Assembly: GCA_024685175.1 (NCBI GenBank)
Contig: JAIKWD010000027.1
Coordinates: forward strand, 99,371-163,370
Direction of reading: 5' to 3'
Length of the DNA stretch: 64,000 nt
DNA from: Bacteroidales bacterium
Lineage (GTDB): Bacteria > Bacteroidota > Bacteroidia > Bacteroidales > WCHB1-69
Shown here: one piece after another, positions 12,652 to 14,934 of the stretch
How the letters are laid out: each line of letters opens with the position of its first letter
How positions within the stretch are numbered: position 1 is the stretch's first letter
The notes under the pieces: generated by a model
The model's input: only the letters and a program-made list of their open reading frames with translations
Told to the model about the DNA's origin: nothing
Databases searched by the model: none
Program-made: the position numbers and the translations under genes

Positions 12652-14934
12652 ATGGATAGAATTGTCGTCACGGGTACTGGCATCATCACCTCGCTAGGGG
12701 CGGGGAAGGTGGAGACATTGCGCAAGCTCAGAGCTGGCGAGAGGGCTATTGGCCCTATCCGGCATGTGCAGACCAAACATGCCGAACTGCCTGTGGGTGA
12801 AGTGCCCTATAGCGACGAGCAATTGAAAGAGCTGCTCCACTACCGGTCTTCGGAGACGATCACGCGCACCTCTCTGTTGGGTCGCGTGGCTATGCGCGAG
12901 GCCCTTGACGAGGCTGAGTTGCTCACCGACCATGGAGAACGTGTGGTCTTTATCTCCGGCAACACCGTGGGCGGCATGGAAAAGAGCGAGCAATACTATC
13001 ACGACTTCTTGACCAACAATGATCGTAACGAGTACATTGCCCTGCACGACTGCGGGGCCTGTACCGATATCATGGCTAAAGAGTTTGGCGGGCGTTTCGA
13101 CATCATTACGACCATCTCTACGGCCTGTTCTTCGGCGGCTAATGCCATTATTCTCGGCGCAAACCTTATCAAGGAGGGTAGGGCAGACGTGGCCGTGGTG
13201 GGGGGCACCGAGTGCTTATCCAAGTTTCATATCAACGGCTTCAACACGTTGATGATTTTGGACAAGGAGCCTTGTAGGCCTTTCGACGCCAATCGTCATG
13301 GCCTTAACCTCGGCGAAGGTGCAGCCTATCTGGTCATCGAGTCCGAAGCGCATGCGGCGAGACGTGGTGCCAAGGCGATTTGCGCCCTTTCGGGTTATGG
13401 CAATGCCTGCGACGCTTTTCACCAAACGGCCACTTCTCCCAATGGCGAAGGCGCTTTTATTGCTATGTCAAAGGCCTTAGCCGACAGTGGTTTGAGACCG
13501 GAGGACATCGACTACATCAATGCACATGGCACAGGTACCGGCAACAACGATGAATGTGAAGGCATCGCCATGATGCGCGTCTTCGGCGAGAAAGTGCCTC
13601 CGGTCTCTTCCACCAAGTGCTATACGGGACATACGACCAGCGCGGCGGGTGGCGTGGAGAGTGTCATCTCCATTCTCGCCCTCGTTCACCATTTCATTCC
13701 GGCCAATCTTGGATATAAGGATCAAATCGAAGGTCATACTTTTACTCCCGTCGATCATGTGGTGGAGAATGTGGAACTGAAGCACATCCTTACCAACTCT
13801 TTCGGCTTCGGCGGCAATGATTCGTCCTGTATTTTCTCTGCGTTGGATACCGACAACAAAAGTGTCGTGGTTATGTCGGATAACCGCTGTTATGTCCAGT
13901 CGGCCGCGCAGATCTCAATGCAGCAGCCTTTGAGTGAGGCTTGGTTTGAGGATCCGATTGTTCCCACTCAAGCGTTTAACGAGACCATAGAACCCAATTA
14001 CAGCCCTTACATTGCCCCTATGGCCGCCCGTCGTATGGGTAAGTTGCTCAAACGCGCCGTGGCTACGGCAGTGAATGCTTTGGGTGCTCATGGGATGCCA
14101 GAGGCTATCATTACCGGTACTGGTTTGGGTTGTATCGACAATACGGAGAAATTCCTCACCTCCATGTTGGATAACGATGAGGAGTTTCTGCATCCCACCT
14201 ACTTTATGCAGTCGACGCACAACACCATCAGCTCTCAGGTGGCCCTGCATCTGAAATGTCATGGCTATAACTGCACCTATTCCCATCGGGGAACCTCCTT
14301 TGACAGCAGTCTATACGACGCCTTGGTACAGATGCGTCTTGGACTGATTCGCAGCGCACTCGTGGGAGGCCAGGAAGAGATGACTCCCGCATATTTTGAC
14401 ATGCTGGGTAAGATCGGATACTGGAAGCAAGGTGCCGTGGACACAGAGACGCTTAGACGTGCCGAGCAAGGCGGTGCCATCTCAGGAAGCTGTTCCTTGA
14501 ATATGTTGCTTGAAACGAATTGCGATGCCGATACATTATGCGCCGTTGATGGCATGGATATGCTCTATGAACCTGATGTCGAGGCGTTGGGCGCCACTGC
14601 CGATCGCTTGTTGCAGCGCGCAGGTCTTGCAAAGGAAGACATATCGGCTGTCGTGATGGGATTGAGCGGCGATTGTGATAATGACAGGGTCTATCGCTCC
14701 TTTGCCAGGCACTATTGTCCGCAGACTCCGATAATATGGTACAAACATATCTTTGGCGAGTCGTTTTGCGCCTCCGCCTTTGGCATTTATGTCGGCGCAG
14801 TGACCCTGCACAGAAATCTCGTACCGGCTCATCTGCTATACAACAGAAAAGACAATTTATGCAATCCGACACATATATTGGTCTATAATCATTTTCACGA
14901 CAAAGACCATTCTTTAATACTTTTATCCAAATGA
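12652..14934 (+). CDS. Ketosynthase fused to a chain-length-factor-like (KS-like, catalytically dead) domain
   Basis: aa ~1-405: KS with STACSSAAN, INAHGTGTGNND, YTGHTTSAAGGVE. aa ~408-760: second KS-like domain (EPNYSPYIAPMAARRMGKLLKRAV...GTGLGCIDNTEKFL...HNTISSQVALHLKCHGYNCTYSHRGTSFDSS...ALVGGQEE) without Cys/His/His. No stop between them. Confidence 0.85.
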   Translation: MDRIVVTGTGIITSLGAGKVETLRKLRAGERAIGPIRHVQTKHAELPVGEVPYSDEQLKELLHYRSSETITRTSLLGRVAMREALDEAELLTDHGERVVFISGNTVGGMEKSEQYYHDFLTNNDRNEYIALHDCGACTDIMAKEFGGRFDIITTISTACSSAANAIILGANLIKEGRADVAVVGGTECLSKFHINGFNTLMILDKEPCRPFDANRHGLNLGEGAAYLVIESEAHAARRGAKAICALSGYGNACDAFHQTATSPNGEGAFIAMSKALADSGLRPEDIDYINAHGTGTGNNDECEGIAMMRVFGEKVPPVSSTKCYTGHTTSAAGGVESVISILALVHHFIPANLGYKDQIEGHTFTPVDHVVENVELKHILTNSFGFGGNDSSCIFSALDTDNKSVVVMSDNRCYVQSAAQISMQQPLSEAWFEDPIVPTQAFNETIEPNYSPYIAPMAARRMGKLLKRAVATAVNALGAHGMPEAIITGTGLGCIDNTEKFLTSMLDNDEEFLHPTYFMQSTHNTISSQVALHLKCHGYNCTYSHRGTSFDSSLYDALVQMRLGLIRSALVGGQEEMTPAYFDMLGKIGYWKQGAVDTETLRRAEQGGAISGSCSLNMLLETNCDADTLCAVDGMDMLYEPDVEALGATADRLLQRAGLAKEDISAVVMGLSGDCDNDRVYRSFARHYCPQTPIIWYKHIFGESFCASAFGIYVGAVTLHRNLVPAHLLYNRKDNLCNPTHILVYNHFHDKDHSLILLSK

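What the first reader, a model, noticed from the sequence alone, without database searches (positions are those of the whole stretch)
12652..14934. Ketosynthase and chain-length-factor-like domain fused in one polypeptide
The 760-aa ORF contains two KS-fold halves. The first (to ~aa 405) keeps Cys-His-His (STACSSAAN, NAHGTGTGNND, GHTTSAAGG). The second, starting near MSDNRCYVQSAAQ (ATG 13873), resembles the PF13723-type chain-length-factor proteins of aryl-polyene/flexirubin clusters. Counting back ungapped from the shared VGG(T/Q)E motif, the catalytic Cys becomes Gly (SHRGTSFDSS), and the second His motif GHT becomes GES. As far as I know KS and CLF are usually separate heterodimerising subunits, so a covalent KS-CLF pair would be unusual and could fix stoichiometry.
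Basis: partly seen in the sequence, partly recalled or inferred. Interest (0 to 1): 0.78.

Follow-up and report, generated by a model that had tools for sequence, protein, structure and literature searches.

The report
Fused ketosynthase and chain-length-factor pigment enzyme
In this uncultured gut Bacteroidales bacterium, two enzyme subunits that normally pair up to build orange polyene pigments are welded into one protein; the weld is real, has arisen several separate times in related bacteria, and resembles a known arrangement in the enzymes that make omega-3 fats.

Summary
ORF 12652-14934 (760 aa) is one open frame: an intact ketosynthase (KS; Cys159, His292, His327) joined by a short variable linker to a catalytically dead PF13723-type chain length factor (CLF; G547, G670, E703 at those positions). 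It is not an artefact: about 119 fused-length homologues keep the KS triad, and the linker has no conserved Met, so a restart at 13873 is unlikely. AlphaFold2 gives one compact model (pLDDT 90.7, pTM 0.94). Its top PDB match, the only listed one spanning both halves, is 6RIW, the PfaC KS-CLF didomain of PUFA synthase. The gene lies in an aryl-polyene/flexirubin-type operon; the pathway's other half is on another contig. Most Bacteroidales encode adjacent KS and CLF genes, sometimes one in-frame stop apart; fusion appears in four separate groups with full-size CLFs (a single clade is rejected, AU p 4.5e-5) and again with half-size ApeC-like CLFs. So this is a recurrent natural covalent KS-CLF, a new variant of a known kind: KS-CLF didomains are known in PUFA synthases, and single-chain KS-CLF proteins occur in Bacillus and Streptomyces records. 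Any benefit from fixed pairing is inferred, not shown.

The parts
12652..14934 (+). KS-CLF fusion gene, 760 aa
   Evidence: single ORF; Pfam; about 119 fused-length homologues; AF2 pTM 0.94
12652..13845 (+). ketosynthase half, aa 1-398
   Evidence: PF00109 + PF02801; best solved relative FabF 4ls5, E 1e-62
13126..13128 (+). codon of catalytic Cys159
   Evidence: invariant in 119 sequences
13525..13527 (+). codon of His292 (NAHGT)
   Evidence: invariant in 119 sequences
13630..13632 (+). codon of His327 (GHT)
   Evidence: invariant in 119 sequences
13846..13890 (+). inter-domain linker, aa 399-413; contains the non-conserved ATG 13873
   Evidence: hypervariable in length and sequence; Met in only 18 of 119 linkers, scattered; low local pLDDT
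13891..14931 (+). chain-length-factor half, aa 414-760, full-size CLF
   Evidence: PF13723; profile matches 9s5h_C, ApeC 6qsp_B and 7f28_A
14290..14292 (+). codon of Gly547 at the Cys position of the CLF half
14659..14661 (+). codon of Gly670 at the first His position of the CLF half
14758..14760 (+). codon of Glu703 at the second His position (FGES)
10577..10584 (+). candidate Bacteroidota -7 promoter element TATATTTG just before the operon
   Evidence: pattern match, position; not tested
10600..11778 (+). second ketosynthase (KSa), 392 aa, keeps Cys (SNACISG), NAHGT and GHT
   Evidence: Pfam; motifs
11794..12366 (+). 190-aa half-size CLF-like protein (U190), probable partner of KSa
   Evidence: no Pfam hit itself, Aureispira homologue hits PF00109; AF2 pLDDT 92, Foldseek best 6kxd_B ishigamide CLF, E 7.7e-7
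12391..12648 (+). acyl carrier protein, 85 aa
   Evidence: NF006617 87.1 bits over cut-off 70
14931..15284 (+). small membrane protein, EamA/ArnE-ArnF-like
   Evidence: weak hits below cut-offs
15306..15929 (+). LolA2-type carrier of flexirubin clusters
   Evidence: NF053544 LolA2_flexi 157 bits over cut-off 125
15937..16302 (+). FabA/FabZ/ApeI-like dehydratase
   Evidence: PF07977 28 bits over cut-off 23
16304..17071 (+). family 2 glycosyltransferase
   Evidence: PF00535

Best explanation
The gene encodes the elongating ketosynthase-chain length factor of an aryl-polyene/flexirubin-type pathway as one polypeptide. The N-terminal KS half does the decarboxylative condensations on the polyene chain carried by an acyl carrier protein, probably the one encoded just upstream. 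The catalytically dead C-terminal CLF half folds back on it as an intramolecular pseudo-dimer and shapes the distal end of the substrate tunnel, thereby setting chain length. The fusion probably arose from neighbouring, translationally coupled KS and CLF genes by loss of the intervening stop; the linker is mostly spacer. Shown by computation: the fusion, the residues, the fold (model), the operon, repeated occurrence. Inferred: catalysis, length control, product, pairing in the cell.
For: Pfam KS then PF13723 in one frame. KS triad invariant and CLF G/E signature conserved in 119 fused-length sequences, and the CLF signature also in 18 sampled split CLFs. AF2 760 aa pLDDT 90.7, pTM 0.94; Foldseek top hit 6riw PfaC KS-CLF, E 7e-45, TMq 0.82, the only listed hit aligned over both halves. 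Operon KSa-U190-ACP-KS.CLF-SMR-LolA-DH-GT2 conserved in relatives with LolA2_flexi over its cut-off. The rest of the pathway (aromatic amino acid lyase, KR, KS, ACP, lipid-A-type acyltransferase, O-methyltransferase, DH-like protein, thioesterase) is on C35 of this genome, and next to the operon in relatives. Split relatives have KS and CLF overlapping, abutting or one in-frame stop apart.
Against: No biochemistry; product unknown. No acyl-CoA ligase of the FlxY type was seen beside either part, though AMP-binding genes occur elsewhere in the genome. The model could not be opened at coordinate level, so the interface and tunnel were not measured; only fused homologues supplied the alignment. 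Proteolytic separation or assembly into larger oligomers is not excluded.
Confidence: 0.85

Rival explanations
1. Two proteins are made from the locus: a full-length chain and a separate CLF from an internal start at 13873.
For: An ATG does lie at 13873, and split relatives translate the CLF on its own.
Against: That Met is not conserved: only 18 of 119 fused homologues have any Met in the linker, at varied positions. Close relative P0003 reads SEVLTNDNRC there.
Confidence: 0.07
2. The apparent fusion is a sequencing or assembly error that removed a stop.
For: Some relatives differ from the fused state by a single in-frame stop.
Against: Many fused-length homologues from many contigs and sources and fused genes in many independent genomes.
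Confidence: 0.01
3. The fused chain dimerises through its KS halves, as FabF does, and the CLF half is a scaffold or regulatory appendage rather than the dimer partner.
For: KS half is about 30-34% identical to homodimeric FabF proteins.
Against: The single-chain model matches the PfaC KS-CLF didomain over both halves, for which an intramolecular dimeric arrangement has been proposed (PMC13311796); split relatives keep KS and CLF as a coupled pair.
Confidence: 0.07
4. About evolution rather than mechanism: fusion is neutral drift, loss of a stop between coupled genes, with no functional gain.
For: Coupled split relatives, some one in-frame stop apart, and hypervariable linkers, a few made of short repeats.
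Against: Fusion recurs in several lineages and is kept through each sampled fused clade, but recurrence alone does not prove benefit.
Confidence: 0.45

Closest known systems
PfaC / PfaB (OrfB) KS-CLF didomain of PUFA synthases (PDB 6RIW)
   Same: Active KS followed by CLF in one chain, proposed intramolecular pseudo-dimer; top structural match over both halves
   Different: PUFA synthase is a type I megasynthase with further DH/AT/ER domains; here the chain ends after the CLF and would work with free ACP, KR and DH. Identity over the match is 16%
ApeO-ApeC KS-CLF of aryl polyene clusters (6QSP, 7F28)
   Same: PF13723-related CLF; aryl-polyene-type gene context; KS related to 6qsp_A (E 9e-50)
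   Different: Separate chains; [quoted passage not shown]
Flexirubin cluster of Chitinophaga pinensis (flxA-Y) and Flavobacterium johnsoniae
   Same: Lyase, several KS, KR, DH, thioesterase, methyltransferase, LolA and glycosyltransferase (PMC3992019)
   Different: Whether KS and CLF are fused or split there was not examined here; dialkylresorcinol genes were not searched for in this genome
Single-chain KS-CLF proteins on Bacillus thuringiensis pMC319 (AFU17634.1, 818 aa) and a Streptomyces plasmid (WP_124286617.1, 794 aa)
   Same: KS and KS/CLF-like halves in one stand-alone chain; the Bacillus second half also shows Gly and FGE at the equivalent motifs by eye
   Different: 27-28% identity, different gene neighbourhoods, second half with PF02801 as well; probably separate fusions (inference)

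Membership tests
KS-CLF pair of type II PKS | Active KS with Cys-His-His | tested here: met
   C159, H292, H327 invariant in 119 sequences
KS-CLF pair of type II PKS | Partner with KS fold and no active-site Cys | tested here: met
   PF13723 hit; G547/G670/E703
KS-CLF pair of type II PKS | Two separate polypeptides forming a heterodimer | tested here: not met
   one 760-aa chain; so a covalent variant, not a standard heterodimer
KS-CLF pair of type II PKS | Chain elongation and length control activity | not testable with these tools
   needs enzyme assay
PUFA-synthase PfaC KS-CLF didomain | KS-CLF in one chain as intramolecular pseudo-dimer | tested here: met
   AF2 and Foldseek 6riw TMq 0.82; a model, not a solved structure
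PUFA-synthase PfaC KS-CLF didomain | Further catalytic domains in the same megasynthase chain | tested here: not met
   chain ends at aa 760 with only KS and CLF domains
Aryl polyene / flexirubin cluster | Lyase starter enzyme, ACPs, KR, DH, KSs, acyltransferase, LolA-type export genes | tested here: met
   present in this genome but in two places, window and C35
Aryl polyene / flexirubin cluster | Aryl polyene product | not testable with these tools
   no chemistry available
ApeC half-size CLF | Single thiolase fold, about 200 aa | tested here: not met
   CLF half is about 350 aa; half-size CLFs occur in other relatives

The most novel reading that the evidence does not exclude
Covalent KS-CLF fusion is a repeatedly selected device in Bacteroidales polyene clusters that enforces cognate pairing, because the same operon also encodes a second KS (KSa) with its own half-size CLF-like protein (U190) that could mispair.
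Probability: 0.25. Interest if true: 0.65.

Novelty: new variant of a known kind. Interest (0 to 1): 0.5.

Why it matters
Type II KS-CLF pairs are treated as obligate heterodimers. A natural single-chain pair, with closely related split versions as controls, gives engineers a ready construct and lets one test what fusion does to pairing, expression balance and chain length. The repeated fusions of both full-size and half-size CLFs make Bacteroidales a natural experiment in how type II systems begin to become type I-like.

Tried and rejected
First KS tree was spoiled by badly placed outgroups and two contig-truncated CLFs labelled short; rebuilt without them. Profile comparison of U190 with the CLF alignment gave negligible probability (0.1%) although the alignment was colinear; the structure route then showed a CLF/KS-like fold. 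Internal start at 13873 and assembly error were considered and judged unlikely. Searches of the held library found no paper describing fused KS-CLF in flexirubin or aryl polyene clusters; most subscription papers are not held, so this absence is weak.

Full report
What is there. The ORF at 12652-14934 is one open frame of 760 codons starting at ATG. Pfam finds a ketosynthase (PF00109, PF02801) in aa 2-355 and PF13723, the chain-length-factor-like family, in aa 447-583, above its curated cut-off. The KS half is closest to FabF-type structures; the CLF half to chain C of 9s5h and, weakly, to ApeC chains.

Residues. In a set of 119 fused-length sequences (the query, its identical database entry and relatives), Cys159, His292 and His327 never vary. 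Profile alignment of the two halves shows Gly547, Gly670 and Glu703 in those places in the CLF half; the alignment of the window CLF with 18 split CLFs shows the same pattern, with one Ser at the 670 position. So the second half is related to a KS but has no cysteine nucleophile. The linker (aa about 399-413) is hypervariable in length and sequence, and the Met encoded at 13873 is not conserved.

Structure. AlphaFold2 on 70 fused sequences gave pLDDT 90.7 and pTM 0.94, with low confidence only at aa 202-213 and the linker. Foldseek's best PDB match is 6riw, the PfaC KS-CLF of a PUFA synthase, the only listed one covering both halves; the other listed matches are single KS chains covering about half. 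An intramolecular dimeric arrangement has been proposed for the PUFA didomain (PMC13311796). Coordinates could not be inspected here.

Neighbourhood. The operon reads KSa, U190, ACP, KS-CLF, small membrane protein, LolA, dehydratase, glycosyltransferase. A strong terminator-like hairpin lies at 10430-10453, TATATTTG at 10577 just before KSa, and TATCTTTG at 17119 just before the next gene, so one transcript is plausible but untested. LolA meets NCBI's LolA2_flexi model. The same gene order is found in relatives, and in several of them it follows a lyase block; in L036 that block is aromatic amino acid lyase, KR, KS, ACP, lipid-A-type acyltransferase, O-methyltransferase, a 136-aa protein taken as a dehydratase without a Pfam hit, and a thioesterase. 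In this genome that block lies on contig C35:68669-75343, 145 kb long, so the pathway is split over two places. The content matches flexirubin clusters (PMC3992019). Product unknown.

Second pair. U190 has no Pfam hit, but its Aureispira homologue does (PF00109), and its model matches CLF and KS folds, best the ishigamide CLF 6kxd_B. It is probably a half-size CLF partnering KSa; inferred.

Distribution and history. Among relatives there are fused full-size CLFs, split full-size CLFs, split half-size CLFs (within the same genus as the window), and fused half-size CLFs. Split KS and CLF genes mostly overlap, abut or lie within a few dozen bases, and several are separated by a single in-frame stop with the CLF's own ATG right behind it. 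A KS tree of 82 rows needs 7 changes between fused and split; fused full-size CLFs form four groups and fused half-size ones three, of which starred branches force two. Holding the 16 fused full-size rows of the earlier 80-row tree (three groups there) as one clade is rejected (AU p 4.5e-5). The tree is unrooted, so fission from an old fusion is not formally excluded. The window's own clade is well supported (100/99); its closest kin come from gut metagenomes of deer, goat, buffalo and horse.

Precedent. PUFA synthases have KS-CLF in one chain (PMC3098273, PMC13311796). Bacillus and Streptomyces plasmid records hold stand-alone KS-CLF chains at 27-28% identity. Hence a new variant of a known kind.

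Mechanism, graded. Shown by computation: fusion, triad, dead partner, modelled fold, context, repeated occurrence. From the literature on the family: the CLF partners the KS and chain length follows pocket depth (PMC8358021). Inferred: intramolecular partnership in the cell, benefit of fusion, product.

Noticed in passing
window 11794-12366: 190-aa protein without Pfam hit is a half-size CLF-like protein beside a second KS: a probable second, split KS-CLF pair in the same operon.
   Followed up: partly
window 10600-17071 and genome contig C35:68669-75343: The polyene pathway is broken into two genomic places here, while several relatives carry both halves together.
   Followed up: yes
L100, L101, L196-L202: KS fused to a half-size CLF, apparently arising separately from the full-size fusions.
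   Followed up: partly
L051, L052, L079-L099: Other genomes of the same genus carry a different version of the operon, with a split KS and half-size CLF; KS about 52% identical to the window's.
   Followed up: partly
linkers of P0056-P0070: Some linkers read as short repeats (MHNAQCTMHNA), as if former intergenic repeat DNA had been captured in the frame.
   Followed up: no
L210:7983-10439 and L211:3971-6355: Single-chain KS-CLF proteins on Bacillus thuringiensis and Streptomyces plasmids.
   Followed up: partly
window 3594-10403: 2269-aa ORF with collagen-like G-rich stretches and many near-identical repeats (ATSGVQQILHKPDLA and similar), probably a surface protein.
   Followed up: no
genome contig C10:31130-35200: 2429-aa open frame with two AMP-binding domains, an NRPS-like gene in a 2.1-Mb genome.
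   Followed up: no
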